DNA of 47,291 bases from Saprospiraceae bacterium (GTDB lineage Bacteria > Bacteroidota > Bacteroidia > Chitinophagales > Saprospiraceae): NCBI GenBank assembly GCA_027488855.1, contig JAIYAV010000170.1, forward strand, positions 1-47,291. The letters are read 5' to 3'. Shown one piece after another: positions 4,108 through 46,980 of the stretch. A program made the translations under genes and the position numbers. How positions within the stretch are numbered: position 1 is the first letter of the stretch; every line of letters starts with the position of its first letter. Below the pieces are notes generated by a model. The model had not been told where the DNA came from. It did no database searches and was given only the letters and a program-made list of their open reading frames with translations.

Positions 4108-4210
4108 AATTGAGTAGTTATTGATGTCAATGAGACTAAAACTACAAGAAAAATTGCAAAACAAGTCCTTAATGGTTAAAAAGATGCACTTTATACTCAG
4201 CCAGCCTTAA

Positions 4211-4250: not shown

Positions 4251-4273
4251 TATTATTTAGCACTCACTAGAAA

Positions 4274-5959: not shown

Positions 5960-5971
5960 GATTGTCGTTTT

Positions 5972-9004: not shown

Positions 9005-9053
9005 TGAGTTATTTGATTGGTTAGAAGAATTAAATAAACTCTAAAAAACACCA

Positions 9054-9061
9054 CAAACTTA
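9054..9061 (-). promoter_or_regulatory. Candidate -7 promoter element for susC
   Basis: On the minus strand TAAGTTTG matches the Bacteroidota sigma-ABfr -7 consensus TAnnTTTG and would place the transcript start about 45 nt before the SusC start codon. No good -33 TTTG is present at the expected 19-21 nt distance, so this is tentative. Confidence 0.25.
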
Positions 9062-9184
9062 TTGGAATCAAATTTGGTCTTCGGTGCCCGAGCTCAGAAT
9101 TAACGGTAAAATATCAGTAAGCCTTACAATGTAATTTTTGCATTAATTTATGGTAAACGTTTGGTTAGAAAGGGTGCTTATGGT

Positions 9185-9213
9185 TTTGTTTTTGCCAGAA
9201 AAAAGTATCATTG
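9185..9213 (+). promoter_or_regulatory. Candidate promoter for the phosphoesterase gene
   Basis: TTTG at 9185-9188 and TATCATTG at 9206-9213 (7 of 8 positions of TAnnTTTG, counting the two free ones) with a 17-nt spacer, 26 nt before the start codon. The short spacer and the mismatch make this a weak call. Confidence 0.25.
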
Positions 9214-9238
9214 TGTGACCATTTAAGCATTACCCATC

Positions 9239-30215: not shown

Positions 30216-32456
30216 ATGGCCCAAAAACTCCTTTTTATCGCCCTGTTCTGTCTGGGATTAACCCAGCTGCAAGCCCGCCACATCATCGGTGGGGCCATGA
30301 GCTACAAGTGCCTGGGGCGCAACGAATACGAGTTCACCCTGCGCCTGTACCGCGATTGCAATTGCCTCGGTTGTCCGCCCTTGGATGCGGTGGCCTATAT
30401 CGGCATTTACCGTTGCAGTACTCCGGCTCAATGCGGCACCCAACTCTCGGCGTTTGGTAGTGTGGATGTACCCCGGCAGAGTTTGCTCAACATCCCTCCT
30501 CCGGAATACCCCTGTTTGGTGCCCCCCGATGTGTGTGTGGAAGAGGGGGTATATATTTTCCGGTACAACCTGCCTTTGTCTACGATGAGTTACCATGTGT
30601 CTTTTCAGCGCTGCTGTAGGGATGAAACCATGAGCAACATCGCCCTGGCTGGTTCGACGGGCGTCACCTATACCGTAGAAGTTACGCCCGAGGCCCAACA
30701 ATTGTGCAACAGTAGCCCGCAGTTTTCCATCGTTCCACCTTCGGTGATTTGTGCAAATGCACTGTTGGTTTACGACCATTCTGCCGAAGAAATGGACGGG
30801 GATAGCCTCGCCTATGAATTGTGTGCGCCGCTCGCCGGCGCGGGCAATACCAATGGGCAACAACTTTCCTTTACTTGTTCAGGGAGTACTCCTCGCCCAG
30901 CTTGCCCGCCGCCTTATACCGAATTGTACTATCGCCAACCTTATTCCGCCGCTCAACCCATTCTGGGCGATCCGCTGCTAAAAATTGATCCACGCACGGG
31001 GCTCATCACCCTGCGTCCCAGTGCCTTGGGGCGTTTTGCGGTGGGCGTCTGCGTGCGTGAGTACCGCAAGGGTGTGCTGCTGAGCCGCGTAACCCGCGAC
31101 TTTCAGTTCAACGTCACCGATGGTTGTAATCCCAAAGTACAGCCCGATGTCAAAGAAGATGTAAAACTGGCCGAAAAAGAATTTTTGATCCGCTCCTGCG
31201 GCAAAACCCTGGTGGACATCAGCAATGAAAGTACGCCACGTGAATCCATCAAGTTGATCAGCTGGAGTTTTGACCTCAAGAAAGGCCCGACCTACCAAAG
31301 CAATCAATGGGATCCTCAGATCCAATTTCCCGATACGGGGCGTTACCAAGGCAAGTTGCTACTCAATCCTGGCTTTGAATGTGCTGATTCGGCGAAGGTC
31401 ATTGTGCACGTTTTACCTTTGTTACAGGCCGATTTTAGTTTTGATTATGATACCTGCAAAGCGGGGGAAGTTCAGTTTCAGGACCTTTCAATTGTACATG
31501 CCAAATCCATCCAGGAATGGAGCTGGTTTTCGGGTGAACGAGGTACGAGTAAACTTGCCAATCCCAGCTTTCAATATGAATATCCCGGAGTAAAAAAGGC
31601 ACGTTTGACGGTACGGGATGCCAATGGTTGTGTTTCTACGATCCAAAAAGAGGTGCGCTATTTCCCCGTACCTAAACTGTTATTGACCACCCCCAGTTCG
31701 GCAGAATTGTGTGAACCGGGGCAGGTTTATTTCCAAAACCTCTCTACGCCGGTGGATACAACTTATCGAATTGAATGGAAATTTGGTGACGGGGGCGTCT
31801 CCCGCAAGCATAGTCCCAGTTATACCTATCCGAACGACGGGCTTTATTCGGTGGCACTCAAGGTGGTTTCACCGATCGGCTGCGAAACCGACACGATTTA
31901 CCCTGATTTAATCCGCATTAAACCCACCCCGAATGCTGCTTTTGCCATTGAGCCGCCGGAGGTGACCAATGTATTTCCCGATTTTCAACTTCAGGATCAG
32001 TCCACCGATGCGGTGCGCTGGTTGTGGCAGTTTGGCGATGGCCGTCAGTACACCGATCATAACCCGAGTGCAACTGCTCGCGAGCTGGGCACTTTGCGCA
32101 TCACTCAGTTTGCGTACAACAATTTTGGTTGCCAGGATAGTACCTCCCAAGTGCTGCGCATTTTACCGGAAGTGCGCTACTTTTTACCCAATGCCTTTAC
32201 CCCCAATGGTGATTCGGTCAACGATGAACTCCGAGCGGTGGGGATTTTTGCGGGCATGCGCAATTTCCGCATCAACGTGTGGAATCGTTGGGGTGAAATG
32301 GTGTTCCAATCCAGCAACCCGCAGGATACCTGGAATGGGCTGAAATTCAATCAGGGGAGCGAGCTTCCGGTTGGGGTGTACACCGTCTTGGCCAGCTACC
32401 TCGATCCAAAAGACCAAATGATCGAATATCGAGGATTTGTTACTTTACTACGTTAA
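30216..32456 (+). CDS. PKD-domain surface protein with CHU_C sorting signal
   Basis: A 746-residue T9SS cargo. The signal peptide ends near LQARHIIGG; the N-terminal ~300 residues (HIIGGAMSYKCLGRNEYEFT) are the cysteine-rich region common to Bacteroidota PKD proteins. Three PKD-like domains follow at about 400-470, 485-560 and 570-640 (WKFGDGG, WLWQFGDG). The C-terminal 90 residues (FLPNAFTPNGDSVNDELRAV to EYRGFVTLLR) are a gliding-motility-associated CHU_C domain, the type B signal for T9SS export and surface attachment, usually with a PorP/SprF-like partner. The binding target is unknown. Confidence 0.92.
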   Translation: MAQKLLFIALFCLGLTQLQARHIIGGAMSYKCLGRNEYEFTLRLYRDCNCLGCPPLDAVAYIGIYRCSTPAQCGTQLSAFGSVDVPRQSLLNIPPPEYPCLVPPDVCVEEGVYIFRYNLPLSTMSYHVSFQRCCRDETMSNIALAGSTGVTYTVEVTPEAQQLCNSSPQFSIVPPSVICANALLVYDHSAEEMDGDSLAYELCAPLAGAGNTNGQQLSFTCSGSTPRPACPPPYTELYYRQPYSAAQPILGDPLLKIDPRTGLITLRPSALGRFAVGVCVREYRKGVLLSRVTRDFQFNVTDGCNPKVQPDVKEDVKLAEKEFLIRSCGKTLVDISNESTPRESIKLISWSFDLKKGPTYQSNQWDPQIQFPDTGRYQGKLLLNPGFECADSAKVIVHVLPLLQADFSFDYDTCKAGEVQFQDLSIVHAKSIQEWSWFSGERGTSKLANPSFQYEYPGVKKARLTVRDANGCVSTIQKEVRYFPVPKLLLTTPSSAELCEPGQVYFQNLSTPVDTTYRIEWKFGDGGVSRKHSPSYTYPNDGLYSVALKVVSPIGCETDTIYPDLIRIKPTPNAAFAIEPPEVTNVFPDFQLQDQSTDAVRWLWQFGDGRQYTDHNPSATARELGTLRITQFAYNNFGCQDSTSQVLRILPEVRYFLPNAFTPNGDSVNDELRAVGIFAGMRNFRINVWNRWGEMVFQSSNPQDTWNGLKFNQGSELPVGVYTVLASYLDPKDQMIEYRGFVTLLR

Positions 32457-34625: not shown

Positions 34626-34663
34626 AAAAAAACAAAAGAGGCAGACTTTTGGAAGCCTGCCTC
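34626..34663 (-). terminator. Intrinsic terminator of the HYR/dockerin protein gene
   Basis: On the minus strand the stem GAGGCAG (34657-34663) / CTGCCTC (34638-34644) with a 12-nt loop is followed by TTTTGTTTTTTT. It lies about 30 bp past the stop codon of the 1305-residue surface protein. Confidence 0.85.
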
Positions 34664-34691: not shown

Positions 34692-37600
34692 TCAATACGA
34701 AGTATAGATCATTCGTTTGCTTGCAGTAAAGGAATCGGTCGAGAGCTGGTAATAGAACACACCCAAGCCGGGTAGTGTTTGTTTCGGTATTTTCAGTTCG
34801 TTGTAACCCCTTTCAAACTTCGCGGAATGTTTGAAAACCAAACGGCCCGCTGCATCGAAGATGCGGATGTGTGCATCCTGCGCTTTTGGCAAAGAAAACG
34901 CAAGGTTGGTTTCGCCGCTAAAAGGATTCGGGTAGTTTTGGTACAAATGAATGCCTTCTCCCTTTTGGTCGGCGGACTCATTCACTTTGAGCAAAACCTG
35001 CATCAATTCACCCGCCTGGTTGTAGGCCTCGGAAGGTGTCGGTGCCTCTTTGATGGACAGTGCAGTAGCCAAATCAGCCGCCCGCAACGCTTTGAAGCGT
35101 ACGGAGAACAGTTGGCGGCGACCATCGGGTACATTTTGACCTTTGCTGTCCCAGCTGGTGTTGAGCAAACCTGCTTTCAGGTCGGCGGTGCCCAGGTTGC
35201 CTTCACTCCATTGGGGCAGTTCCCCGTTTTTGGCATCCAGCACTTGGAGTAGGTGGTGGTCAAAATCCAGGGTAAACTGGAAGCCTTGCACATTTGATAC
35301 CCCTTCAGCACTGAATTCTACGGTAACTTCTTCTCCAGCTTCAAAAGCCTGATTGCTGGTTTCAATGATGAGTTCGCCATTCGTGGTCCGGCCATCGGTA
35401 TTGGCCAGACTGTTCGGTTTGGCGCTCATGTTCACGTCGCCCACTTTTATCCCCACAAAGTCGGCCCGGCCTTCCTTCGACAAAAAGTTGTTGAGGCTTT
35501 TTGCTTCAGGGTAAAGTGCCTTGAGCGGATCCTGACCCTCAGGAAATTTAAAACTGGCATCAATAAAGCGCCAGGAAGTGTTCCCGTTGGGAAAACTGGT
35601 TTCCATGTTCAGGATCAATTTACGCAGGCGGATCAAGTCTACGGTAGAAATATGCCCAGATTTGTCAACATCCGCAGCAATGTGCTGATAAGGCGTTTTG
35701 AGCAAGCTCAAGCCCAGGATATGCTTTTGGATGATCACTAGGTCTATTGTCGTTACCCCGTTGATGGGGTCTTCATTCTTTTGTGGTACGATGGTGTAAT
35801 CTCCACCCAGGGGTACTTCAGGCAGCTGGTAATTCCCATCCACCCCGGTAGCCGTTTGGCCCAATTGTTTGCTACCAGAAATGGCAACCGATTCAATTTG
35901 GACACCTACTTCTGTTTTGATTATCCCTGAAATTTTACCCACTTTAGAGCCATCGGGTGCGCACAACTTTCCGTTGTCCTGAATGTCGATAAATGTGGTA
36001 CAAAAAGCACCATTGTTCAAGGTATCGTACACCCAAAGCTGGACGGACTGGCGGCCAACGTCGGCACAGGTAAAGGTCACTTGTTCGGCGGGGTTGGTCA
36101 GTAGGGTTCCTGAACCCCGGCGGATGGCAATACGGGCAGGTTTTCCGCCACAATCGTCGTAACTTCCCGCATCAAACAACTTTGCATCGATGAGTGCTGC
36201 GGTTTGGCCATCCTTGATGTCTAGCGTAGTAGACAAACCATTGAGGCACTGCGGTACGGGTGGTTTTTTGTCCACCACAGTAATGGTCATCGAGCCTTGA
36301 GTAGCGTTGCCGCACTGATCTACGGCCCGGAAATTGATCTTGTGCGTGCCTACGGGGTAAGTACCAGAGGCCAAAGCCCCCTTGAGGTCAGCGTATTTGC
36401 CATCATTGGTAATCGTTACGATGCCCCCACAATCGGTACCAGTAGCTGCCCGCGTAGTCACCTTGATGGTTTTGCAGTGTTCGGTCAAGAAGAATGTGGT
36501 GTCTTTGGGCACGACCAAGGTTGGAGATGTACGGTCTTCCACTCTGATCAGCTGAGTAAACGTAAAGATCGACTTTTGTGGATCGGTGGGGTCGTGGCCG
36601 CACCAGTCGATGACTGACCATTTCCGGAAGATTTGGAAACAAGTTTCATTTTGAGATTCAAACCTGCGGTCTTCATAACTGATGCCTACGGTTCCACAAA
36701 TGGGGGAGGTGACGACTGGCTCGCGGTTTTCGAGGGGCAAATCTTTAGGATCCGTTTTTCCCCCACATCCTACGATGGTATAGTCCTTTGGCCATTTGAT
36801 CATTGCGGCGGTCAACTTGTTGTTGTTGACAATCGTAATGGTTTGGCTACAGGTAGCCGTGCGTCCCTTCCAATCTTTGGCGGTGAAGGTGCGGTTGATT
36901 TTGCCCCGGTTGCATTCGGCACGCTCGTAGCTGCTGGTAGAATCCAGGGTAAAGGAGCAGTTTTCGAGTACGATCGGGCTTCCAAATACGTGCAATTTGG
37001 TGATGTCCGTTGTGCATTCAACCACTTTGTTGGCAGGGCAAGTAATGCGTGGCCCCAATTCATCGCGAATGGTTACGGTAAAATCACAATCATTGTACTT
37101 GCCATAGAGGTCGCCCCCCTGACTTTCACGCGCGGGGTCAACTGGGCCGTTTCCTGGGTCAACTTCATATACCCGGAGGGTAACTTTTACATTTTGGCTG
37201 TCTACGTCATTGCAACAGAACACGGCGTAATCATCGTAGTATTCCTGGTAATCAGGAGTAGAAGGGCTGTCGTCCCCATTGATTTTGTTGCAAGAACCAG
37301 CTACCCAGCGACGGGCCTTGTAGTACAGGCGTGTTTTGCAATTGTCCCTGCTGCCTTCATCAAAACTTTTCGCCTGAATGAAAGCGACCCCACCTTCGGG
37401 GAGTGAAATGATGTTGTTTTTGCGGCAAACTACCGTTGGGACTTCTTCATCCACAACGGTAAGTGTGGTTGTACACACTGAAGAGTTTCCGCACAAATCA
37501 ATCGCAGTATAGGTAATGGTATGGGTACCTAGTGGCACATTAAAGTGAGGGTTAAAGCCCGAACTTCCGTAAGAAGCCCGAACAGAAACGGCTGGATTTG

Positions 37601-38609
37601 GATCACAATTGTCACTTGCAGTTGGTCTGGGCAACTGGATGGCAGCGGTACATTGCCCCGGATCGGTGCGCTTGCGGATCGGTGCCGGGCAAGTCAGCGT
37701 TGGGGCTACCTCGTCTCTTACCTGGATGACCTGGGTTGCTTCCCGGATTGCTCCGGTACAACGATCCAATATCGTCCACTTCCGAGAAATTAATCGACCC
37801 AATCCTTCACAAATCTTAGTGGTATCATCGCGAAACGTAATCACAAAATCGCAGAATCCATTGCTCTTGAGTTTGCGACCTTGAAAAGTTGGTACCCCGG
37901 TTATGGACGTATCCGCACTGGGCCGATCACAAGGTAAGTTCACCAAACCAGGGATGCTCACATCGGCAACACCGATTTTTTTCAAAACTATTTTCTGAAT
38001 ACAGGTATCGGCATTTCCAGAAGAATCCCGGGCAATCCAGCTCCGACGGATGTAAATTGCAGTATCGCTGCCGCAACGCCCCCGCAGGAATAAGTCTTCA
38101 TAACGCAGGCGCACAGTGCGGTTGATGTTGTCAGTTACTCTAGGGCGGCCCAGTACTCTTGCACTGGTATCTGCGACACAGAACAAGGTTGTATCGCGAC
38201 AAAAGATTTCAGGCGCCTGCGTATCAAACACTTGTATGTATCCAGAGCAGTTAAAACTCGTAGCGTTATCTCGTACCAGTACAGTTAATACTTTTCCAAT
38301 TCTTCCACGTACACTGATTCTCAATGGATCGGGCCCATTGGCAATAAACTCTCCATTTTCATCTACAACAGTAATGGTTTTCGCTCCTGCACAGGTAGAG
38401 GTTGCATCAACAATCAGTTCACTACCGATGTTTACTTCGCCAGATGCCCCCACACTAATGCGGACAGGGGCGGTAGGGGAAATACTTTTACACACCAATT
38501 GACACTGGGCTGATACCGTTTGGCTCCAGAACATCAGGACCGGAATCAAGATCGGAATCCATCTCGTCCATCCTTCTAAAATGGGAATGTACGGTGTTCT
38601 CTCATTCAT
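34692..38609 (-). CDS. HYR-domain surface protein with dockerin- and cohesin-like modules and T9SS type A signal
   Basis: A 1305-residue T9SS cargo. Hydrophobic signal segment about 17-35 (ending TVSAQ). Then several HYR/Ig-like domains, clearest at about 302-392 (LGTHTITYTAIDLCGNSS) and 696-787 (VGTHKINFRAVDQCGNAT). A carboxypeptidase-regulatory-like domain is at about 890-950. A type I dockerin-like pair of calcium-binding helices follows at about 950-1065 (NGVTTIDLVIIQKHILGLSL, DVDKSGHISTVDLIRLRKLI, VGIKVGDVN). A cohesin-like domain is at about 1078-1205 (GFQFTLDFDHHLLQVLDAKN), then the type A sorting domain from about 1225 (YQNYPNPFSGETNLAFSLPK). Dockerin and cohesin in one chain is unusual. 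Own terminator downstream; an upstream terminator separates it from the porP-like gene. Confidence 0.9.
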   Translation of the reverse strand: MNERTPYIPILEGWTRWIPILIPVLMFWSQTVSAQCQLVCKSISPTAPVRISVGASGEVNIGSELIVDATSTCAGAKTITVVDENGEFIANGPDPLRISVRGRIGKVLTVLVRDNATSFNCSGYIQVFDTQAPEIFCRDTTLFCVADTSARVLGRPRVTDNINRTVRLRYEDLFLRGRCGSDTAIYIRRSWIARDSSGNADTCIQKIVLKKIGVADVSIPGLVNLPCDRPSADTSITGVPTFQGRKLKSNGFCDFVITFRDDTTKICEGLGRLISRKWTILDRCTGAIREATQVIQVRDEVAPTLTCPAPIRKRTDPGQCTAAIQLPRPTASDNCDPNPAVSVRASYGSSGFNPHFNVPLGTHTITYTAIDLCGNSSVCTTTLTVVDEEVPTVVCRKNNIISLPEGGVAFIQAKSFDEGSRDNCKTRLYYKARRWVAGSCNKINGDDSPSTPDYQEYYDDYAVFCCNDVDSQNVKVTLRVYEVDPGNGPVDPARESQGGDLYGKYNDCDFTVTIRDELGPRITCPANKVVECTTDITKLHVFGSPIVLENCSFTLDSTSSYERAECNRGKINRTFTAKDWKGRTATCSQTITIVNNNKLTAAMIKWPKDYTIVGCGGKTDPKDLPLENREPVVTSPICGTVGISYEDRRFESQNETCFQIFRKWSVIDWCGHDPTDPQKSIFTFTQLIRVEDRTSPTLVVPKDTTFFLTEHCKTIKVTTRAATGTDCGGIVTITNDGKYADLKGALASGTYPVGTHKINFRAVDQCGNATQGSMTITVVDKKPPVPQCLNGLSTTLDIKDGQTAALIDAKLFDAGSYDDCGGKPARIAIRRGSGTLLTNPAEQVTFTCADVGRQSVQLWVYDTLNNGAFCTTFIDIQDNGKLCAPDGSKVGKISGIIKTEVGVQIESVAISGSKQLGQTATGVDGNYQLPEVPLGGDYTIVPQKNEDPINGVTTIDLVIIQKHILGLSLLKTPYQHIAADVDKSGHISTVDLIRLRKLILNMETSFPNGNTSWRFIDASFKFPEGQDPLKALYPEAKSLNNFLSKEGRADFVGIKVGDVNMSAKPNSLANTDGRTTNGELIIETSNQAFEAGEEVTVEFSAEGVSNVQGFQFTLDFDHHLLQVLDAKNGELPQWSEGNLGTADLKAGLLNTSWDSKGQNVPDGRRQLFSVRFKALRAADLATALSIKEAPTPSEAYNQAGELMQVLLKVNESADQKGEGIHLYQNYPNPFSGETNLAFSLPKAQDAHIRIFDAAGRLVFKHSAKFERGYNELKIPKQTLPGLGVFYYQLSTDSFTASKRMIYTSY

Positions 38610-38704
38610 GGCACAATGTTTTTGACGGTTTCGAATTAAGAATTTTTATTATCCAAAACCAATACCGTGCCAAAGTGCTTCTGAAGAATGTTTTTTTATT
38701 TTTT

Positions 38705-38740
38705 CCAAAAAAAAAGCCCCCTTCACAACTGAAGGAGGCC
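38705..38740 (-). terminator. Terminator-like hairpin before the HYR gene
   Basis: On the minus strand a stem GCCTCCTTC / GAAGGGGGC (one mismatch, 6-nt loop; plus-strand arms 38716-38724 and 38731-38739) is followed by nine T. It would end transcripts coming from the porP-like gene (stop at 39121) and lies about 95 bp upstream of the HYR gene start. Confidence 0.7.
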
Positions 38741-38975
38741 ATCCCAAAAACCGATTTAAGTATATTCTTGACGCATTTTCAGGGTACCATGCAGGTACAC
38801 TAGAAGCGATACAATTCAATTGGAAAATCAGAAAACAAGTGTGTAGGGAAAGGAATGTAGCCTTTTAAGCTTATTCAAACAGTTAAAGGAGGGAAGAAAC
38901 TGCTGAATAGATATTAACGAGCAACAAATATCAAAATTTTATTAAATAATCCCAATACCCAATTGTTGGTATTTT
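38741..38975. other. Non-coding stretch between porP-like gene and HYR gene
   Basis: A/T-rich, no convincing open frame on either strand. One short inverted pair, GTACC/GGTAC, is at about 38784-38798. Nothing else identifiable is seen before the long inverted repeat at 38976. Confidence 0.4.
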
Positions 38976-39119
38976 GATTTCGGATGTGGGATTGCGGATT
39001 TCGGTTGGCGCTTCGCATTAACTATAAGCATCTTATTGTAAAACACTTACACTTTGAGTTCAAAGTTAATTTTGTAAGCGAAGCACCAGCCGAAATCCGA
39101 AATCCCAAATCCGAAATCG
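38976..39119. repeat. Long inverted repeat, CGATTTCGGATTTGGGATTT type
   Basis: Two imperfect arms of about 42 nt (38976-39016 and 39078-39119), made of GATTTCGG-like units and ending in GCGCTTCGC or its variant GTGCTTCGC, pair across a loop of about 60 nt that itself holds a short ATTAAC/GTTAAT pairing. The right arm ends one base before the porP-like stop codon. It could be a small non-autonomous mobile element or a transcript-end hairpin; no target duplication is obvious. Confidence 0.75.
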
Positions 39120-39120
39120 A

Positions 39121-40053
39121 CTATCTTCTACCGTAACGGCTACCAGGCTTGTTTTGTGGTCCTTTAAATCCAAAGGCCAAAGTCACTTCATGAGAGCCAG
39201 TAGAGTATTGCTGTAAGTCTTGCATCGATAAATCAAAGGTGTAGAAAAAGCGGAAGCTATCCGATATTTCTGAACCAATCAATGCCCCGATGGTTTTGAG
39301 AGAGCGGTAAGACAAACCCGCAATCAACTTATCATTAAGGATACCAGCTTTGAGGTTGATGTCGACATTGAAAGGGGTGTCTTTGATTTGACGCACCATG
39401 ATCGAGGGTTCCAGACTCAACTGGTTGTTGGACAGTTCAAACTTGTGGCCTACCAGAAACACATAGTGCTGAAACAAGCTGCCTGATCCCTCAGTTGTGC
39501 CAATATTGTTCAGTCGCTCTGCAATCAAGTTGGTAAAGCTCAAACTGGCATAGGTATTTTCATAAAATCGAGCAAAGAATCCCAATGACGCATCGAATTG
39601 TTGACGGCCATTCACCGCTGCTTCGATGATGTCATCACCTTGTTGATAATCTGGTTCTCCCAATACATTATTGCCTACTGATACCTGGCTGAATTCGGTT
39701 GAAAAACCAATAGCCAGCTTGACATTTTCATTGACCTTGAAGCGGAAACCCGAATTCAAGCGGGCACGTACGCGGGAAATGCGAGCTGCACTTTCCCCCA
39801 TGACTGCCAGGCCAAAACCAAAAGTATTGCCCATTGGGCCGTGGTATTGCACGCCTACATTTTTGGGTGCATCGGGGAATCCAATCCATTGGCCGCGTGC
39901 ATTGAACTGAATTTGGTGGGTTTCTTCAAAACCAGCAGCAGCCGGGTTGATCAAAATTGGCGCCAGGTTGTAGTGCGTAAAAATGGCTTCATCCTGAGCC
40001 CAAAGTAAAGCTGTTGGCAACAGCAACAATATAAGATGTAACAATTTTTTCAT
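39121..40053 (-). CDS. PorP/SprF-family T9SS outer membrane protein
   Basis: A 310-residue outer-membrane beta-barrel protein. Start set at 40053 (MKKLLHLILLLLPTALLWAQ), which gives a clean signal peptide. An alternative ATG at 40077 adds eight residues. The mature start DEAIFTHYNLAPILINPAAA is the PorP/SprF hallmark (QxxxYxxNPxxINPAxAG). Family knowledge: SprF-like proteins help export and anchor type B (CHU_C) cargo such as SprB. Here it directly follows a 1960-residue protein with SprB repeats and a CHU_C end, so it is very likely its dedicated partner. Long inverted repeats lie on both sides of the gene. Confidence 0.92.
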   Translation of the reverse strand: MKKLLHLILLLLPTALLWAQDEAIFTHYNLAPILINPAAAGFEETHQIQFNARGQWIGFPDAPKNVGVQYHGPMGNTFGFGLAVMGESAARISRVRARLNSGFRFKVNENVKLAIGFSTEFSQVSVGNNVLGEPDYQQGDDIIEAAVNGRQQFDASLGFFARFYENTYASLSFTNLIAERLNNIGTTEGSGSLFQHYVFLVGHKFELSNNQLSLEPSIMVRQIKDTPFNVDINLKAGILNDKLIAGLSYRSLKTIGALIGSEISDSFRFFYTFDLSMQDLQQYSTGSHEVTLAFGFKGPQNKPGSRYGRR

Positions 40054-40100
40054 GGCTAAAATCGGTTGATGGTTCATGGAATATTGTTAAGGGGCGATAA

Positions 40101-40202
40101 AAAAATAAGTATTTCATTTTACCCAAAGATTAGATAAGTAAACGGTTCATTTTAAGTTTCTTATCTAATCCTTGGGCTCAGAAAAAATGAACACTTATTT
40201 TT
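40101..40202. repeat. Long A/T-rich inverted repeat upstream of the porP-like gene
   Basis: Arms 40101-40138 and 40160-40202 are imperfect inverted copies (shared AAAAATAAGT, TCATTTT, CCCAA and GATTAGATAAG) around a 20-nt loop. On the minus strand the structure ends in CTTATTTTTTTATC, so it could act as a terminator or a stabilising 3' end for the 1960-residue gene's transcript. It leaves under 50 bp before the porP-like start, with no room for a separate promoter outside the repeat. Confidence 0.75.
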
Positions 40203-40215
40203 GCCCAACTACTAA

Positions 40216-40250
40216 GTATCGGGGCAGTCATTGGGATGCTGCCCCGATAC
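40216..40250 (-). terminator. Strong GC-rich hairpin after the cohesin scaffold gene
   Basis: A perfect 12-bp stem GTATCGGGGCAG (40216-40227) with CTGCCCCGATAC (40239-40250) and an 11-nt loop, 11 bp past the stop codon at 40262. On the minus strand it is not followed by a T tract (TTAGTAGTTGG), so it may be an mRNA-stabilising or partial-termination hairpin in the scaffold-porP transcript. Confidence 0.55.
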
Positions 40251-40261
40251 AAAAAGCTTGC

Positions 40262-43200
40262 TTATTTTTCTCTTAGCAGCGTAATTGACCCTTTTGCCTG
40301 TATCTCTTTGCCATCGGCGTTCTTATAGTCCAAAATGTAGTAGTAGGCACCTTCTGGGAGTAGCTCTCCGCTTTGGGTGGTACCATTCCAGTCGTTGTTG
40401 TAGTTTTGAGCCTGGTAAACGAGTTGCCCCCAACGGTTGTAGATAAAAATTTTGTTGTCAGCAAATTCCTGAATGCAATTGATCAGGAAGGTTTCGTTCG
40501 AACCATCTCCATCTGGAGAAATAACCGAGCGAATGTCCAGACAGGGCAAACGGCGGTCTTTTACTTCAATGGCGCTCACATCAGGGGTTGATTTACAACC
40601 TCTTGAATCGGTAATCTGTACGAAGTACTCTCCGGGACAAAGGCTTTTTACAATCGAATCCCCACTGGTAACCGGCGCATTCCAGCGGTAAGTGTAGGGC
40701 TTAACTCCTCCCTTAGCCAAAGCCAATACCTGACCATTACAACCTTCGGTTGCATTGATGCTCTGGATTTGTACAGTAATTGCGTTTGGTTCCTTTATTT
40801 CAAAGGATTTGGTCACGGTACAATTGTTCTTGTCGGTAATGGTAATGGCATAGGCCCCTTTGGTCAAGCCAGTAATCCGGGGAGTGCTACGTCCGTTGCT
40901 CCAAGCGTAGGTAAATTTCCCTCCAGCCAGGCCTCCTTCTACTTCTGCAGCAAGTTCACCATCCCGGCTCCCGATACAGGATACATCGGTAACAAAGGCA
41001 CTCACATTCAAAGCATCTGGTGCTTTCAATTCTACTTCTTCCTCTACGCTACAACCCAGGCCATCCGTGATGCGTACCTTATATAGGCCTACTGTGGCAT
41101 TGTTGAGTACGGAAGTAGAAGCAATCAGGTTTCCTTTCAAAGACCATTCATACACGTAAGTTGGTGCACCGCCACCGTTGGCACCCGTAGCACGAACCGA
41201 ACCATCTTTGGCAGTGGCGCAGCTTACTGCAAAGCCATTGAAGCTGGATAAAATTTGAATATTCGCGGTCAATTTCGAAGCAGTAGTAACGGTATATTGT
41301 TTTTCAAGGCGCAAACCCGAATTTTCTCTAACCACAAAACGGTACGCCCCAGCGGCAACATTGCCCAAATCTTTAGTTTTGGAAATGGTGTCCCCTCTGG
41401 CACTCAACCAGGCATAACGATACGGTGTTGATCCTCCAAGAACGGTGACGTTTACACCACCATTGTCATCATCGGGGCAGCTGGTATTGACAATCGCTGC
41501 ACTCACGGTGAAGGTTGTCAAAGGAATCGGTGCGAATGTTTTGCGGCAACCATTGGCATCAATAACAGATGGCACAAAATTGCCCTCACACAGGTTGATG
41601 ATTTGGAAACCCACGTTTGGTGAATTCCAGGAAACCTGGTAGCCAGGAGTTCCACCAGTAATCGACAGTGCAATGCTCCCTGTACAGCCAGGATCTTCGG
41701 AATCGTGACGAACTGCAAAGGAAGAAATGACCAGGGGATCAGGTTGGCCTACTGTAAGCGATCCATCAAATACCGTATTTCTTGAATCGGTTACTTTGTA
41801 AGTATAAGTACCTGCCGCCAGATTTTTACGCTCAAATGCGCCTAGGGCAAGGTTCTCTGGTTGTCCATTGTTGAAGGCTAAAGCGTAAGGCCCTACCCCA
41901 CCCAATACTTGTAAACGAACTGCACCTGACGCTTCTCCATTACATTTGAGGCCAGTAATGTCGCTGGTGACGGAGAGTGGAATGGCTACCAGTTCAACTT
42001 TAAAACAGCCTGTTGCGGTACAACCCACCAAATCGGTTACGGTCACACAATACTCACCCACAGCCAATGCCGACAAGTTACTAGTGGTACTGTTGTTGCT
42101 CCATTTGTAAGTATAGCCTGGTTTTCCTCCGGTTACCGTGAGCGAAATTGCCCCATTTGTGCCACCAGGAGCATTCACATCCGTAACTGTCCGGGCGATT
42201 TTGATTTCGGTCAGCGCCGGAACCAATGCACTTCCAGTTACGGTATTGTTCTGACTATCGGTTACGGTTACCGTATAGTTACCCGTTGCAACATTGCTGA
42301 TGTTTTGGGTAGTTACGTTGTTGTTGCTCCATTTATACGTATAAGGAGCAACCCCACCCGTGGCCAGCAGGCTTACACCGCCGTTGGCTTGCCCAAAGCA
42401 GGCTTCTGTAACGGTTAGGTTCACTTTCAAGCGCTGCACAATCGAGGCGCACATGGTCGTTGTACAATTGGTATTGTCGGTTACAGTTACACAATATTGG
42501 CCAGCAGCACCTAAATTGCTGATGTCTTCGGTAGTCGCAGTGTAGTTATTCGGACCAACCCAACTGAATTTGTAAGGCGCGATACCACCAGAAATGGCAA
42601 TGTTCACAGCACCGTTGGTCGTATTTTGGTCAAAATTAACCGGATCGATAGATGTGATGCGTACACTTTGCTCGGTAGAAACGGTTACAGAACCGGTGAA
42701 AGTACAACTCTTCGAGTCTGTAACGGTAAACGCATAACTGCCTCCCGCAACATTGCTCAATTGATTCGTAGTGGCATTGTTTGCCCATTTATAGGTGTAT
42801 GGAGCCGTGCCCCCCGTAGCAGTAATGGTTGCAGAACCAGTTGGCGTTCCATCACATTTAGCAGGCTGAGTGCCAGTGCTTGCATTGAGCGCAGCAGCAG
42901 GTTGGCCCACCGCGGTAGGACTAGATACGGCCCGGCAGCCATTGGCATCGGTCACCGTCAAGGTATAGCTGCCTACTGGAACATTGGTCGGATTGGCTAC
43001 AGCGGCCAGGTTTCCACTCCAGGCATAAGTAAGGGGAGTGGTACCACCAGTAACTACAGCGGCAAGTGAACCACTGGCCTGACCAAAACAGTTGGCATCA
43101 GTTTTTGTAATTCCAGTAATGGCTAATGCAGCGGTAGGTTGTGTCACATTGAAAGTACCAACTGCGGTTGCATTGCTGGCGTCAGTCACCGTCACGCTAT

Positions 43201-46144
43201 AGGAACCAGCCGCGAGGTTGCTTAGATCTTGAGTTGTTGCATTATTGCTCCACTTGTAGGTATAAGGAGCAGTTCCATTGCGCACTTCAATATTGATGGC
43301 ACCTTTACTTTCTCCAAAGCAAGGAACATTGGTGATTACTGCTGGAGAAACAATGGTAGGCGCATTGGGATTTCCGATGGATACAGTACCATTAAAGGTT
43401 TGATTTGGAATGGCTTTTTCAGTGACATCGGTTAATTCAATCGTTTTGGTTTTATCAATGCCCACCGTTGAAGATCCGGAAGTTCCTTTGATGGTGAAAC
43501 ACATCCGCATGATCACTGCATTGTTGGGCAAGGTCACCCCCGCAATCTGGTCATCTACCCACGAAAGGTTGATAAAGCCCGTCGTATTATTGGCATTGAT
43601 GCTACCTGTGGAAAATCCACGTAGGCCAGCATTCAGATTGTCAAAAGATTTATGGGTCAGGAATGCTGGATCAAATTTGATCGCATACTGCATTCCAATC
43701 ACGTTTTTGAAATTGGACGTAGTCAACTCCAGACACACATCACTATTCGTAGCGCCGCTAGCACTACCTACTGTTAGCGTTAAATCCGAAGTTGTAACCG
43801 TACCAATGGTCACTGTACCTGCGCCGGTTTGTACGACGGCAGGCAGGTTGTTTGACCGGGTAACAGTTAGACCTGTTGTGCTAAAATTTACTTGTGACGC
43901 GCCTGTTTTTAGTGGCGTAAAGCACACATCAAAAATATTGGACGTGCTGGCCAAAGTGACCCCGCCAACCGTTGCAGTGCTCCAATTGACCTTTAAAGAT
44001 CCAGCGGTAACCCCACCTGTGCCCGGAGGTGTAAAGGATGCTTGAGTCAATCCAGCAAGGCTGAGATTGGTAACACTTTTGAATTGTAGTGCGGTGGCAT
44101 CATAAGTCATGGTGCCTGCGAGTGCTGAAATATTGGTAAAATCCACCACACTCACTTTGACACATACATCCTGTGCCATTACTCCAGACTGGCTACTCAC
44201 ATTGAGTTTTACATCGGGCAGATTAGAGGCACTGCCAATGGTAATGGTACCAGGTTGGCCCGTGAACGGCAATGGGGTATTGTCTTTATCGATGGCTTCG
44301 GGGGCAGGGGTAGTGGCAAAAGTTACGTTTGAAGCAACATTTGTGACTTTGCCTTTGAAACAGACATCAAAAATGGCAGTGCCATTAGCCAAGGTAATTC
44401 CAGTTACATTGGGGTCACTCCAAGATACCTTGATCCTACCAGCAGGGTTCGTACCCACTCCTGGCAAACCAAACGATGCTTCGGTCAAGCCATTGAGGTT
44501 AAAATTCTTAACCGCTGAAAATTCTAGTTGAGTTGTATTGTAGCTGATCGTAAACTCCAAACCAATCATGTTGGTGAAGCCACCAGCCGTATTCACTTTA
44601 ATACAAACTTCCTGATTGGTTGCAGGTACCGTTGCATCGGTGAGATCGAGTGTAAAATTTGTTGAACCGCTGCCACCTGAACCAACTGTGATGGAACCGG
44701 ATTGGCCACTAAACGTAACTGGTTGTTGATCCTTATTGATGACTTCAGAAGTACCACCAAAAGTAACCGTTGAAGTGACGTTGTTTACTTTAGGCTTAAA
44801 ACACACTTCAAAAATAGCTGTGCCATTGGGTACACTTACCCCGGTGTTTACATTAGGGTCATTCCAAGACAATTTAATTGAGCCCAATGGAGTACCACCA
44901 ACTCCAGGCTTGCTAAAATTCGCATCAGCTAATCCAGCCAAGTTGAAGTTTTTGACAGACACAAAATCCAGTTGAGTGGAATTGTAGGTGATGGTATATT
45001 CAACACTAAGCAGATTCGTAAAATTAGTTACGTTGACCTTTTGGCATACGTCCTGGCCCACGGTACCAGTTGCATCAGTCAAATCAAAAGTGGCTGCGCC
45101 AGTGGTACCAGAGCCTCCAGTAACCGTGATCGTACCCGTGGTACCATTCAAGGTTACAGTCTGATTGTCCTTGTTTTGAACTTGTGCCCCCGAAGCAAAG
45201 GACAGGGTTGACGTAATGCCTGCCAATTTTGTAGTAAAACAAACATCAACAACTGCTGTGCCGTTGGCCAAAGTATTTCCAGCGGCGGGCGTTGTACTGG
45301 TCCAGTTCATGGTCAGTGTGCCCGGTGTAGCCGAGTTAAAATTAGCAGCAGTCAGTCCGGTCAAATTAAAGTTTTTGACGGAAGCGAAATTGAGGTGGGT
45401 CGTATTGTAATTGATAGACAATTGAGCAGTCTTCAGATTGGTAAACCCAGAAACGGCATTGACTTTTACACAAACCTCTTGATTAACCGCTGGAGCGGTT
45501 GCATCGGTAATGTCCAAGGCCAGAATGCCACCTGTTCCACCTCCTCCACTGCCCCCTGCGCCAATGGTGATTACCGGTTGGGCCACGCTATTATCTACCG
45601 CAACATTTTGTTCGGCCTTGTTGATGACCTCTTTGTAAACAAAACGAAGATTGGTGGTCGCATCCAGGTTTACGGCCGTAAAGCAAATGTCAAAAATAGC
45701 CGTACCATTAGCTAAGGTTACCCCAGTAATGTTGTTGTCAAGCCAGGATACCTTTAAGGTTCCAGTGGGGTTGTTGCCCGCGCCTGGCAAGCCCATTGTG
45801 CCTGCGGATAAACCCGCGAGATTAAAGTTTTTAACTTCTTTAAAAGTGAGTTTGGTAGAGTCAAATTTAAGTGAAAACTCAAGCCCAATGATGTCAACAA
45901 AACCTGAGACTTTAACTTGAGCACAAAACTCGCCTCCTTTTTGGACCGTTGCATTCGCAATTGTCAAGGAGAATCCCATGAGTGATTCATCCGCTGGGAC
46001 GATCTCAATGGGTAATTTTTTATCACCTGTAACAGCAGATGAATTGTTGGAAAATGCTTGAAATGGAGTGAATATGGCCAGAAATACAAAAGCTATTGAC
46101 CCTATCTTCACCCCACGGAGCAGGTGTGTAATAATCGGTTTCAT
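40262..46144 (-). CDS. Giant surface protein: six cohesin-like modules, SprB repeats, CHU_C signal
   Basis: A 1960-residue T9SS cargo. Signal region 1-32. Six tandem cohesin-like modules of about 145 residues span about 58-928, starting near 58, 205, 351, 495, 645 and 788. Each has the pattern GLEFSLKFDSTKLTFKEVKN ... GTLKVSWLDNN ... LANGTAIFDICF. Gly/Ser linkers (GAGGSGGGGTGG) separate some of them. About twelve SprB-like repeats follow (about 930-1870; CFGESKGAINIEV, GTAPYTYKWSNNATTQDLSN). The end (about 1872-1960; ISPDGDGSNETFLINCIQEF to KGSITLLREK) is a CHU_C type B sorting domain. Probably a long surface adhesin or scaffold. Flanked by a single-cohesin protein upstream and a PorP/SprF gene downstream on the same strand. 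What the cohesins bind is unknown. Confidence 0.92.
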   Translation of the reverse strand: MKPIITHLLRGVKIGSIAFVFLAIFTPFQAFSNNSSAVTGDKKLPIEIVPADESLMGFSLTIANATVQKGGEFCAQVKVSGFVDIIGLEFSLKFDSTKLTFKEVKNFNLAGLSAGTMGLPGAGNNPTGTLKVSWLDNNITGVTLANGTAIFDICFTAVNLDATTNLRFVYKEVINKAEQNVAVDNSVAQPVITIGAGGSGGGGTGGILALDITDATAPAVNQEVCVKVNAVSGFTNLKTAQLSINYNTTHLNFASVKNFNLTGLTAANFNSATPGTLTMNWTSTTPAAGNTLANGTAVVDVCFTTKLAGITSTLSFASGAQVQNKDNQTVTLNGTTGTITVTGGSGTTGAATFDLTDATGTVGQDVCQKVNVTNFTNLLSVEYTITYNSTQLDFVSVKNFNLAGLADANFSKPGVGGTPLGSIKLSWNDPNVNTGVSVPNGTAIFEVCFKPKVNNVTSTVTFGGTSEVINKDQQPVTFSGQSGSITVGSGGSGSTNFTLDLTDATVPATNQEVCIKVNTAGGFTNMIGLEFTISYNTTQLEFSAVKNFNLNGLTEASFGLPGVGTNPAGRIKVSWSDPNVTGITLANGTAIFDVCFKGKVTNVASNVTFATTPAPEAIDKDNTPLPFTGQPGTITIGSASNLPDVKLNVSSQSGVMAQDVCVKVSVVDFTNISALAGTMTYDATALQFKSVTNLSLAGLTQASFTPPGTGGVTAGSLKVNWSTATVGGVTLASTSNIFDVCFTPLKTGASQVNFSTTGLTVTRSNNLPAVVQTGAGTVTIGTVTTSDLTLTVGSASGATNSDVCLELTTSNFKNVIGMQYAIKFDPAFLTHKSFDNLNAGLRGFSTGSINANNTTGFINLSWVDDQIAGVTLPNNAVIMRMCFTIKGTSGSSTVGIDKTKTIELTDVTEKAIPNQTFNGTVSIGNPNAPTIVSPAVITNVPCFGESKGAINIEVRNGTAPYTYKWSNNATTQDLSNLAAGSYSVTVTDASNATAVGTFNVTQPTAALAITGITKTDANCFGQASGSLAAVVTGGTTPLTYAWSGNLAAVANPTNVPVGSYTLTVTDANGCRAVSSPTAVGQPAAALNASTGTQPAKCDGTPTGSATITATGGTAPYTYKWANNATTNQLSNVAGGSYAFTVTDSKSCTFTGSVTVSTEQSVRITSIDPVNFDQNTTNGAVNIAISGGIAPYKFSWVGPNNYTATTEDISNLGAAGQYCVTVTDNTNCTTTMCASIVQRLKVNLTVTEACFGQANGGVSLLATGGVAPYTYKWSNNNVTTQNISNVATGNYTVTVTDSQNNTVTGSALVPALTEIKIARTVTDVNAPGGTNGAISLTVTGGKPGYTYKWSNNSTTSNLSALAVGEYCVTVTDLVGCTATGCFKVELVAIPLSVTSDITGLKCNGEASGAVRLQVLGGVGPYALAFNNGQPENLALGAFERKNLAAGTYTYKVTDSRNTVFDGSLTVGQPDPLVISSFAVRHDSEDPGCTGSIALSITGGTPGYQVSWNSPNVGFQIINLCEGNFVPSVIDANGCRKTFAPIPLTTFTVSAAIVNTSCPDDDNGGVNVTVLGGSTPYRYAWLSARGDTISKTKDLGNVAAGAYRFVVRENSGLRLEKQYTVTTASKLTANIQILSSFNGFAVSCATAKDGSVRATGANGGGAPTYVYEWSLKGNLIASTSVLNNATVGLYKVRITDGLGCSVEEEVELKAPDALNVSAFVTDVSCIGSRDGELAAEVEGGLAGGKFTYAWSNGRSTPRITGLTKGAYAITITDKNNCTVTKSFEIKEPNAITVQIQSINATEGCNGQVLALAKGGVKPYTYRWNAPVTSGDSIVKSLCPGEYFVQITDSRGCKSTPDVSAIEVKDRRLPCLDIRSVISPDGDGSNETFLINCIQEFADNKIFIYNRWGQLVYQAQNYNNDWNGTTQSGELLPEGAYYYILDYKNADGKEIQAKGSITLLREK
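43360..45975 (-). repeat. Tandem cohesin-coding repeats
   Basis: The DNA encoding the six cohesin-like modules repeats with a period near 435 bp. Recognisable recurring stretches on the plus strand are GTGCCATTAGCCAAGGTAAT-like and TTGAAGTTTTTGACAG-like segments. The copies are diverged, modules 2-4 being closest to one another and module 6 the most distant, which suggests old duplication with some later homogenisation. Confidence 0.6.
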
Positions 46145-46176
46145 CTTTTCGGAATTTGGGATAAAGTGAGTAATGA

Positions 46177-46980
46177 TTATTGCATAAAAATCACTGGTTG
46201 CAAAGTAAATGAAGTTCCCTGGTACATGCGGACAAAGTAATTGCCCGGGGATGGAAAGACTGATTTTGGCAATAATAACTCTTGCTTACCGGCTAAATAA
46301 GAGCGTTTTTCTGTGTGGACTATTTTTCCTAGAACATCAACCACTTCAATATTCATTCTACCTGCGTCACGCAAAGTGAACTCCAATGTAAGGTTGGTAT
46401 TGAATGGGTTAGGATAAGCCTTGTTGACGCGAAGTTTATTAGGGTCACTAGCAAAGACGGCTGCACTGGTTTGAGGTTTGATGACTACAATGCCATCCGT
46501 ATATTGTGTATTTACAGTAGAGAAAGTAGTGTCGATAATTTCTCTTTCCAAGGTGGGAGACGCTGCAATGCTTACAAAAGAGATTGGACTTTTAGCGCCA
46601 GGCTTCCCGATAACTTTAAAATAAATAGAAAACAGCGTAGTGTTGTCTTTTACGCTTAGTCCAGAAATTCCTTCCTGCCACAAAAAGCGAAGCACGCCAT
46701 TTTTGGTGTTTATGTACCCAAAATGGTCGTTTTTGCTTAACGGAATACCAAAATTGCCAATGGAGTCAAAACTGATCACGGCAGAATCCCATGCAACAGC
46801 AAAAGATGCACCAATGATTTTTTTGAAGCCCGCTACTTTGACATTGGCGACATAGGTTTTGGCGCCACTTGGGAGGGTATCTTTATTCGCAGAAATACGG
46901 GTAAGCGTTTGAGCATTACCCTGGGCTAAGCATAGGAATGTCACTGCCCAGCATAGGAGTACTTGAATAGTTTGTTTCAT
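46177..46980 (-). CDS. Single cohesin-like protein with T9SS type A signal
   Basis: A 267-residue T9SS cargo. Signal peptide 1-24 (ending QGNAQ). One cohesin-like domain at about 28-165 (KIIGASFAVAWDSAVISFDS, GVLRFLWQEGISGLSVKDNT). A type A sorting domain closes it at about 185-267 (VNKAYPNPFNTNLTLEFTLR, GNYFVRMYQG). It starts 32 bp upstream of the giant cohesin gene and is almost certainly its operon partner. It lacks SprB repeats and would be attached to lipopolysaccharide by the usual type A route, unlike its type B neighbour. Confidence 0.9.
   Translation of the reverse strand: MKQTIQVLLCWAVTFLCLAQGNAQTLTRISANKDTLPSGAKTYVANVKVAGFKKIIGASFAVAWDSAVISFDSIGNFGIPLSKNDHFGYINTKNGVLRFLWQEGISGLSVKDNTTLFSIYFKVIGKPGAKSPISFVSIAASPTLEREIIDTTFSTVNTQYTDGIVVIKPQTSAAVFASDPNKLRVNKAYPNPFNTNLTLEFTLRDAGRMNIEVVDVLGKIVHTEKRSYLAGKQELLLPKSVFPSPGNYFVRMYQGTSFTLQPVIFMQ

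What the first reader, a model, noticed from the sequence alone, without database searches (positions are those of the whole stretch)
34692..46980. Possible T9SS-exported cohesin/dockerin surface assembly
Within 12.3 kb on one strand there are a protein with six tandem cohesin-like modules, a single-cohesin protein, a protein with a dockerin-like EF-hand pair plus a cohesin-like domain, and a PorP/SprF export partner. All three cargo proteins have T9SS C-terminal signals (two type A, one type B). Cohesin-dockerin pairing is proven in Gram-positive cellulosomes; isolated modules occur widely elsewhere, but an ordered cluster of scaffold, dockerin protein and dedicated export partner in a gliding-type bacterium suggests a cell-surface complex that is not cellulolytic (no enzyme gene here). 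The modules are seen in the sequence; the complex is inferred.
Basis: partly seen in the sequence, partly recalled or inferred. Interest (0 to 1): 0.75.

Follow-up and report, generated by a model that had tools for sequence, protein, structure and literature searches.

The report
T9SS-exported cohesin-dockerin surface scaffold operon
A relative of a sheathed bacterium carries a conserved gene cluster for a large surface protein studded with six "socket" (cohesin) modules, its likely dedicated export partner and a protein with a matching "plug" (dockerin) module, so these bacteria may build cellulosome-like surface assemblies for a purpose other than digesting cellulose.

Summary
On the minus strand lie a one-cohesin protein (267 aa), a six-cohesin protein with SprB repeats and a type B signal (1960 aa), a PorP/SprF protein, and a HYR-dockerin-cohesin protein with a type A signal (1305 aa). 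Family profiles pick out cellulosomal cohesins and dockerins in the PDB, and modelled scaffold modules match crystal cohesins (TM 0.81). The dockerin has a variant first calcium loop, a canonical second one, strong two-fold symmetry and a conserved extension. The first three genes look like an operon: in 41 family genomes (30 genera) PorP follows the scaffold in 40 and a one-cohesin gene precedes it in 33; in the other 8 the contig begins inside the scaffold or within 0.7 kb of it. Dockerin units number at least 26 in this genome and 29 in Haliscomenobacter hydrossis (sheathed, non-motile), mostly beside a cohesin and T9SS tail; a few proteins, including an ExeM/NucH-type nuclease, end in a dockerin with no tail. 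Binding is not shown: coevolution gives no sign of docking within a chain and no positive evidence between chains. Best reading: a non-cellulosomal T9SS-linked cohesin-dockerin surface system, a new variant of a known kind.

The parts
46177..46980 (-). one-cohesin protein, 267 aa, type A T9SS signal (P267)
   Evidence: a one-cohesin gene precedes the scaffold in 33 of 41 family loci
40262..46144 (-). scaffold protein, 1960 aa: six cohesins, SprB repeats, type B T9SS signal (P1960)
43361..45991 (-). six tandem cohesin modules, about residues 52-928 of P1960
   Evidence: six profile hits; modules 3-4 modelled with pLDDT 90.6 and matched to crystal cohesins
40262..43348 (-). SprB-repeat region and CHU_C type B signal, about residues 933-1960 of P1960
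   Evidence: SprB 12 stretches, CHU_C 1870-1956; TIGR04131 57.9 bits, cut-off 35
39121..40077 (-). PorP/SprF-family membrane protein, 318 aa, presumed cognate shuttle of P1960
   Evidence: PF11751 E 2.8e-52, TIGR03519 189.4 bits; directly downstream of the scaffold in 40 of 41 loci
38715..38740 (-). terminator-like hairpin that may close the three-gene operon
   Evidence: pattern match; 18 found against a mean of 15.6 in shuffles, so weak alone
34692..38609 (-). HYR-repeat, dockerin, cohesin, type A tail protein, 1305 aa (P1305)
35421..35786 (-). dockerin core plus conserved extension of P1305 (residues 942-1063)
34974..35420 (-). linker and cohesin of P1305 (residues 1064-1212)
   Evidence: PF00963 1085-1188; modelled; Foldseek cohesin hits
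34638..34663 (-). terminator-like hairpin after P1305
   Evidence: pattern match only

Best explanation
This is a non-cellulosomal cohesin-dockerin surface system exported by the Type IX secretion system. The three-gene operon makes a multi-cohesin scaffold (P1960), its own PorP/SprF shuttle and a small one-cohesin companion (P267). P1960 leaves through the T9SS, is handed to its PorP/SprF partner by its type B signal, and presents its cohesins (six here, 3-10 in relatives) outside. Dockerin-bearing proteins made elsewhere then plug in: mainly large surface proteins whose common C-terminal cassette holds both a dockerin and a cohesin, and a few that end in a dockerin without a T9SS tail (an ExeM/NucH-type nuclease among them). 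Because cassette proteins carry one plug and one socket, they could also join each other in chains. Shown by sequence: modules, export signals, gene order and its conservation, genome-wide dockerin set. Inferred by homology: shuttle pairing and surface anchoring. Inferred and untested: cohesin-dockerin binding, chain formation, and the biological role (matrix or sheath, holding of enzymes).
For: Cohesins: Pfam; PDB profile search; model of modules 3-4 (pLDDT 90.6) matches 5nrm_A and 5nrk_A at target-normalised TM 0.81 and 1ohz_A at 0.79. Dockerins: at E 0.01 or better 93 of 95 cassettes match PF00404 and 75 of 95 match PF00963; PDB profile search; the two halves are 49% identical in register against 2-16% out of register, loop-closing D in 95 of 95 in both halves, T at position 11 in 91 and 74 of 95, R at position 18 of the second half in 82 of 95. 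The two profiles find the two chains of one solved complex, 5nrk. Gene order: PorP downstream in 40 of 41, one-cohesin gene upstream in 33 of 41, dockerin-cohesin gene as a neighbour in 26 of 41 family loci. Co-occurrence in the same 150 genomes: cohesin absent in 10, dockerin unit absent in 14, both absent in 8 (Fisher P 2.4e-8); none of the 41 scaffold genomes is dockerin-free (P 0.009). Dockerin-terminal proteins: five of 29 units in H. hydrossis, with look-alikes in this genome. Type B substrates of Flavobacterium johnsoniae tested there need cognate PorP/SprF shuttles, often genetically linked (PMC12618676, abstract and passages).
Against: No binding test. Most dockerins sit beside a cohesin in the same chain (22 of 29 in H. 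hydrossis; 27 of 30 examined in G056), unlike enzyme-borne cellulosomal dockerins. The P1305 model has pTM 0.80 for a four-domain chain, which may mean a rigid cassette rather than free plugs and sockets. Coevolution over 164 cassettes gave no doc-cohesin signal (18 pairs in the top 0.5% against 37.7 expected), so no positive evidence for pairing. The first calcium loop is not canonical. The presence correlation is confounded: in most proteins dockerin and cohesin share one ORF, and the genomes are related. Six genomes have cohesins without the dockerin unit and two the reverse. PF00404 at loose thresholds is not specific: at E up to 1 it also matched in 9 of 14 control genomes, over its cut-off in 2. 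How dockerin-terminal proteins without a T9SS tail would leave the cell is unknown.
Confidence: 0.6

Rival explanations
1. The cassette is a structural stalk: Ig-like, dockerin-like, extension and cohesin-like modules form one rigid C-terminal rod that holds HYR adhesins off the surface, and dockerin and cohesin no longer bind anything in trans. The scaffold cohesins are then Ig-like spacer repeats in an adhesin.
For: Dockerin and cohesin sit at near-constant spacing in most proteins; pTM 0.80 for the cassette; couplings join Ig, dockerin and extension; no doc-cohesin coevolution.
Against: Scaffold cohesins occur without dockerins and several dockerins occur without cohesins, at protein ends; dockerin symmetry and residues at recognition positions are kept; cohesin and dockerin tend to be absent together.
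Confidence: 0.25
2. Self-docking: within each cassette the dockerin docks on its own cohesin, giving a clamp, with trans exchange only rarely.
For: Dockerin and cohesin in one chain at near-fixed spacing; high pTM.
Against: Doc by own-cohesin couplings were below expectation (18 against 37.7) while within-cohesin, doc-extension and Ig-extension couplings were above it. Ig-cohesin and extension-cohesin pairs were below expectation too, so this is absence of signal, not proof. Model coordinates and PAE could not be inspected.
Confidence: 0.12
3. P1960 is an ordinary SprB-type gliding or attachment adhesin with its SprF; the neighbouring dockerin gene is unrelated.
For: SprB repeats, type B signal and PorP/SprF neighbour are the known adhesin arrangement (PMC12618676); the dockerin-cohesin gene may be a separate unit and was seen as a neighbour in 26 of 41 loci.
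Against: 3-10 cohesins are seen in 40 of 41 orthologues and a one-cohesin gene precedes the scaffold in 33 of 41; the type species is described as non-motile. Many loci end at contig ends, so 26 of 41 is a lower bound.
Confidence: 0.25
4. A cellulosome-like polysaccharide-degrading complex.
For: Multi-cohesin scaffold plus dockerin proteins.
Against: No glycoside hydrolase or carbohydrate-binding module in the four window proteins or in the nine own-genome dockerin proteins scanned. The other dockerin proteins of the genome were not scanned in full.
Confidence: 0.04

Closest known systems
Clostridial cellulosome (e.g. Acetivibrio cellulolyticus ScaB, Clostridium thermocellum CipA)
   Same: Multi-cohesin scaffoldin, dockerins with two-fold symmetry, dockerin-borne proteins encoded elsewhere; among the closest solved cohesins and dockerins by sequence and the closest cohesins by fold.
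   Different: T9SS type B signal and PorP/SprF partner instead of Gram-positive anchoring (the latter recalled); SprB repeats and no CBM found; most dockerins sit beside a cohesin in the same protein; conserved dockerin extension; no glycoside hydrolase in what was scanned.
Non-cellulosomal cohesin-dockerin proteins of archaea (Archaeoglobus fulgidus 2xdh; ANME archaea, PMC9012536, passages)
   Same: Cohesins and dockerins outside cellulose degradation; 2xdh is a fold match (target-normalised TM 0.78).
   Different: The passages seen say that archaea with such domains lack large multi-cohesin scaffoldins; here the scaffold has 3-10 cohesins.
SprB/SprF and other type B adhesin and shuttle pairs of Flavobacterium johnsoniae (PMC12618676, abstract and passages)
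   Same: Type B signal and neighbouring PorP/SprF gene; SprB repeats in the cargo (Pfam).
   Different: Added tandem cohesins and a one-cohesin companion gene; the nearest named organism is non-motile.
Adaptor scaffoldins carrying both a dockerin and a cohesin (recalled, no call)
   Same: One dockerin and one cohesin in a single protein, allowing chains.
   Different: Here many paralogues per genome carry this pair together with a T9SS tail, many with HYR-type regions.

Membership tests
Cohesin (PF00963) | Match over the curated cut-off | tested here: met
   Six stretches in P1960 (109.6 bits); P267 28.2 and P1305 29.5 bits against 24.1
Cohesin (PF00963) | Cohesin fold | tested here: met
   Model of P1960 modules 3-4 and Foldseek: target-normalised TM up to 0.81, rmsd 2.5
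Dockerin type I (PF00404) | Match over the curated cut-off | tested here: inconclusive
   P1305 21.3 bits whole, 23.3 bits as a fragment, cut-off 22.9; other units of this genome are above it
Dockerin type I (PF00404) | Two similar calcium-loop-helix halves | tested here: met
   49% identity between halves in register, 2-16% out of register, 95 cassettes
Dockerin type I (PF00404) | Two canonical calcium loops (consensus recalled) | tested here: inconclusive
   Second loop fits; first loop is a variant with N-G shifted by one position
Dockerin type I (PF00404) | Calcium-dependent binding to a cohesin | not testable with these tools
   Needs purified proteins or a two-chain prediction
Cellulosome | Scaffoldin with several cohesins | tested here: met
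   Six in P1960; 3-10 seen in 40 of 41 orthologues, the other cut off by its contig
Cellulosome | Dockerin-borne plant cell wall enzymes and CBMs | tested here: inconclusive
   None in the four window proteins or in nine own-genome dockerin proteins; the remainder of the at least 26 dockerin proteins was not scanned
T9SS cargo | C-terminal sorting domain | tested here: met
   TIGR04183 on P267 and P1305, TIGR04131 on P1960, all over cut-off
Type B substrate with cognate PorP/SprF shuttle | PorP/SprF gene next to a type B substrate gene | tested here: met
   Window, and 40 of 41 loci including it
Type B substrate with cognate PorP/SprF shuttle | Export depends on that shuttle | not testable with these tools
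   Needs gene removal
SprB-type gliding adhesin | Host glides | tested here: inconclusive
   H. hydrossis described as non-motile; motility of this strain unknown

The most novel reading that the evidence does not exclude
Saprospiraceae build a protein mesh on their surface (in Haliscomenobacter perhaps part of the sheath) by T9SS export of a multi-cohesin hub and many plug-and-socket cassette proteins that polymerise through cohesin-dockerin bonds; dockerin-ended enzymes without a T9SS tail are held by, and perhaps exported together with, their cohesin partners.
Probability: 0.2. Interest if true: 0.88.

Novelty: new variant of a known kind. Interest (0 to 1): 0.62.

Why it matters
One T9SS cellulase paper states that its genome, consistent with other Bacteroidetes, had no cohesins or dockerins (PMC5831590, one passage). 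A conserved gene order in 30 of 100 sampled genera of this family (a lower bound) that joins a multi-cohesin scaffold to a PorP/SprF-family gene, with 19-29 dockerin units found in each of the three genomes of this genus, would add an assembly principle coupled to a secretion system and outside cellulose degradation. It makes two questions testable: what the large HYR and SprB-repeat surface proteins of Saprospiraceae assemble into, and what the Haliscomenobacter sheath is made of. It could also supply new plug-and-socket pairs.

Tried and rejected
Self-docking was tested by coevolution on 164 non-redundant cassettes (177 before removal of near-copies): pairs within cohesin, within dockerin, dockerin-extension and Ig-extension gave signal, doc by own cohesin did not (its best pair ranks 53rd overall). 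The analysis is shallow (effective number 140), its top list also holds pairs between distant domains that are probably noise (for example extension with tail), and the binding-face positions were chosen by me from the model's strands. It only lowers that reading.

A cellulosome reading was checked by Pfam on the window proteins and nine dockerin proteins and not supported.

RNA families in the window: none at gathering score. The promoter and terminator scan is barely above its shuffles, so the transcription units are tentative.

The idea that the conserved GDVN at the end of the extension is a permuted first calcium loop came from a weak stretch (1.4 bits) and was not pursued.

Some weak PF00404 matches lie in 1000-1190-aa ORFs whose ends do not look like dockerin proteins (L031, L033, L038); they were left out of the dockerin alignment.

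The nuclease of the third genome of the genus (G016) could not be judged: its contig ends inside the gene.

Literature: searches listed no paper, by title and abstract start, on a cohesin-dockerin system in Saprospiraceae or on a T9SS-exported multi-cohesin scaffold; the listings are capped and the library holds open-licence papers only. A review of non-cellulosomal modules (Peer 2009) is not held, so earlier mention there cannot be ruled out.

The 41 scaffold genomes were picked by me from the listing (best hit 389 bits or more), not by a script; weaker relatives were left out, so 41 of 150 is a lower bound.
Full report
Reading along the minus strand: 267 aa (46980-46177), 1960 aa (46144-40262), 318 aa (40077-39121), 1305 aa (38609-34692). 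The gaps are 32, 184 and 511 bases. Terminator-like hairpins lie at 47109-47078, 38740-38715 and 34663-34638 on the same strand (18 found against a mean of 15.6 in shuffles, so suggestive only). The simplest layout is a three-gene operon and a separate 1305-aa gene. The window is a whole contig, C270, of an 8.37 Mb draft genome in 422 contigs, so what lies upstream of 47291 is not known.

Domain content. P267: one cohesin, type A tail. P1960: six cohesins, 12 SprB stretches, CHU_C type B signal. The 318-aa protein: PorP/SprF family, E 2.8e-52. P1305: HYR repeats, a weak carboxypeptidase-regulatory-like domain, a dockerin at the edge of its cut-off, a cohesin and a type A tail.

Are the modules genuine? 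Single-sequence searches of the PDB were weak: none of the listed hits of P1960 is a cohesin, and P1305 reached dockerins at 0.002-1. Profiles do better. A profile of 38 cohesins from the window and loci of the genome collection gives cellulosomal-type cohesins in its first 15 rows (5nrk_A 1.9e-11 first) and the Archaeoglobus cohesin 2xdh as row 16 (0.0025); two designed Ig proteins follow at 0.003 and 0.005. A profile of 24 dockerin units gives 4uyp_B (1.8e-8) first, then chains labelled serine protease (8x39, 8x3a), and cellulosomal dockerins such as 4uyq_B and 5nrk_B. An AlphaFold2 model of P1960 modules 3-4 (22 rows, pLDDT 90.6, pTM 0.53) matches 5nrm_A and 5nrk_A at target-normalised TM 0.81, rmsd 2.5. 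The model of P1305 residues 882-1305 (95 rows, pLDDT 94.4, pTM 0.80) has three helices in the dockerin region and a beta-rich cohesin region; Foldseek gives cohesins among its best hits, mixed with pilins, antibodies and other Ig-like chains. Coordinates and PAE could not be inspected. The pdb_via library was absent.

The dockerin. The second loop is canonical; the first is a variant (for example D-x-D-x-x-N-G-V-S/T-T-x-D). In 95 aligned cassettes the two halves are 49% identical in register against 2-16% at shifts of 1-4; the loop-closing D is present in 95 of 95 in both halves; position 11 is T in 91 and 74 of 95; position 18 of the second half is R in 82 of 95; position 19 is K or R in 70 and 80 of 95. 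Residues at positions 11, 12, 15, 18 and 19 contact the cohesin in Ruminococcus flavefaciens complexes (PMC5429695, passages; I matched the numbering by eye). An extension of about 55 residues follows the third helix; its W, K, G and D are invariant in all 24 own-genome units aligned. Couplings tie it to the dockerin and to the preceding Ig-like domain. At E 0.01 or better PF00404 matches 93 of 95 cassettes and PF00963 75 of 95.

How common. Own genome: 25 cohesin matches in 19 ORFs and at least 26 dockerin units (29 of 70 candidates were scored). PF00404 itself is loose: at E up to 1 it matched in 9 of 14 control genomes, over its cut-off in 2, and some weak own-genome matches look unrelated. 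The extended unit is more specific. G112, of the same genus, has a chromosome of 8,371,686 bases, the figure printed for Haliscomenobacter hydrossis, described there as non-motile with a hyaline sheath (PMC3156403, passages). It has 29 units at E 0.001 or better: 22 followed by a cohesin (one of these with its end not in the stretch held), 2 by a tail only, and 5 at the end of the protein, four within 2 residues and one with 51 residues after the match (L220 and L221 are weak). The third genome of the genus, G016, has at least 19. In G056, 34 units were found and 30 examined: 27 are followed by cohesin and tail, 3 end the protein. Of 150 family genomes, 140 have a cohesin and 136 the dockerin unit; 8 lack both, 2 lack only cohesin, 6 lack only dockerin (Fisher P 2.4e-8; related genomes and shared ORFs inflate this). 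In a draw from the class, 12 of 296 genomes have the unit; 5 of these are in the same family and the other 7 carry one or two copies each.

The operon. I examined the window and 40 other family loci whose best hit to P1960 had 389 bits or more. PorP follows the scaffold in 40 of 41; in the other the contig ends inside the scaffold. A one-cohesin gene precedes it in 33 of 41; in the other 8 the sequence begins inside the scaffold (7) or 0.65 kb before it (1). A dockerin-cohesin gene is a neighbour in 26 of 41. Scaffolds show 3 to 10 cohesins in 40 of 41; one is cut off before its cohesins, and other truncated ones are undercounted. The 41 genomes fall in 30 genera; none lacks dockerins (P 0.009). 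Of the 78 named loci, which were fetched for the cassette and not for the scaffold, 6 show PorP with a multi-cohesin scaffold, one PorP alone and one a scaffold piece alone. This genome holds a second multi-cohesin protein with a type B signal (48.3 bits, cut-off 35) beside another PorP-family gene (161 bits, cut-off 90.55) on contig C195.

Proteins that end in the dockerin. Own genome: C90, an ExeM/NucH-family extracellular endonuclease (477.8 bits, cut-off 300); C25, with a Trypsin_2 match below its cut-off (18.7 against 27.6 bits); C206 and C140, without another domain over its cut-off; a 139-aa frame on C140 without a methionine, probably a gene fragment; and C393, a dockerin protein of about 193 aa from its first methionine, which starts 66 bases after an 837-aa cohesin protein that has a type A signal (28.7 bits, cut-off 23). 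Five look-alikes exist in H. hydrossis: the nuclease by search (72% identity), the other four by C-terminal resemblance only. ExeM/NucH relatives in G104 and G006 (37 and 38% identity) have no dockerin and end in type A signals just below the cut-off (21.7 and 19.0 against 23 bits), as if plug and tail were alternatives; a relative in G140 has neither, the G016 relative is cut by its contig, and for the rest the end was not examined. N-termini look like signal peptides by eye; no predictor was run.

Self-docking test. On 164 non-redundant cassettes, pairs in the top 0.5% of coupling scores were in excess within cohesin (57 against 39 expected), within dockerin (25 against 7), dockerin-extension (38 against 17) and Ig-extension (29 against 19), and short for dockerin by own cohesin (18 against 38), as they were for Ig-cohesin (26 against 40) and extension-cohesin (25 against 39). 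Recognition positions by the binding face scored no higher than random sets (P 0.76). This argues against cis docking but is shallow, and it gives no support for pairing in trans, which a promiscuous system would not show in any case.

Mechanism. P1960 most likely leaves by the T9SS and is kept on the surface by its PorP/SprF neighbour, as reported for type B adhesins of F. johnsoniae (PMC12618676, abstract and passages). Its cohesins then capture dockerin proteins. The cassette proteins, with one plug and one socket, could extend the assembly. The last two steps are inferred. The strongest contrary facts are the rarity of free dockerins (3 of 30 and 5 of 29 in the two genomes classified), the variant first loop and the absence of any binding evidence.

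Novelty. Cohesin-dockerin systems outside cellulosomes are known; ANME archaea carry many such proteins, and archaea are said to lack large multi-cohesin scaffoldins (PMC9012536, passages). A T9SS-linked multi-cohesin scaffold with its own shuttle did not appear in the listings of my searches, which cover open-licence papers only. I rate it a new variant of a known kind.

Noticed in passing
L174 (G000:C195:33000-48000), 3026-8731 and 8766-9782, minus strand: A second multi-cohesin protein (1902 aa, five cohesins, type B signal over cut-off) beside a PorP/SprF-family gene in the same genome, so the window scaffold is not the only one.
   Followed up: partly
L180 (G000:C393:15000-21474), 3138-6296; compare L221 in G112: A cohesin protein with a type A signal followed 66 bases later by a small dockerin-only protein, a natural candidate pair for a binding test; the H. 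hydrossis locus also has a small dockerin protein after an ORF with a similar C-terminus.
   Followed up: partly
L167 (G000:C90), 1686-4907; L187 and L189 in G104 and G006: An ExeM/NucH-family nuclease that ends in a dockerin in this genome and H. hydrossis, while two distant relatives end in near-cut-off type A T9SS signals.
   Followed up: partly
L193-L196 (H. hydrossis); contigs C143, C26, C382, C361 of G000: Four H. hydrossis cassettes are 96-99% identical in DNA, and several draft contigs here have cohesin matches within the first 0.5 kb; recent duplication or gene conversion of cassettes may explain the fragmented assembly.
   Followed up: partly
L176 (G000:C202:10000-18845), 5373-8675, minus strand: One protein with the order cohesin, cohesin, dockerin, cohesin, tail: a single chain with several sockets and one plug.
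   Followed up: no
window 30216-32456, plus strand: A 746-aa protein with a type B sorting signal (TIGR04131 39.1 bits, cut-off 35); its neighbours of 242 and 298 aa were not tested for PorP/SprF except that the 298-aa one had no NCBIfam match.
   Followed up: no
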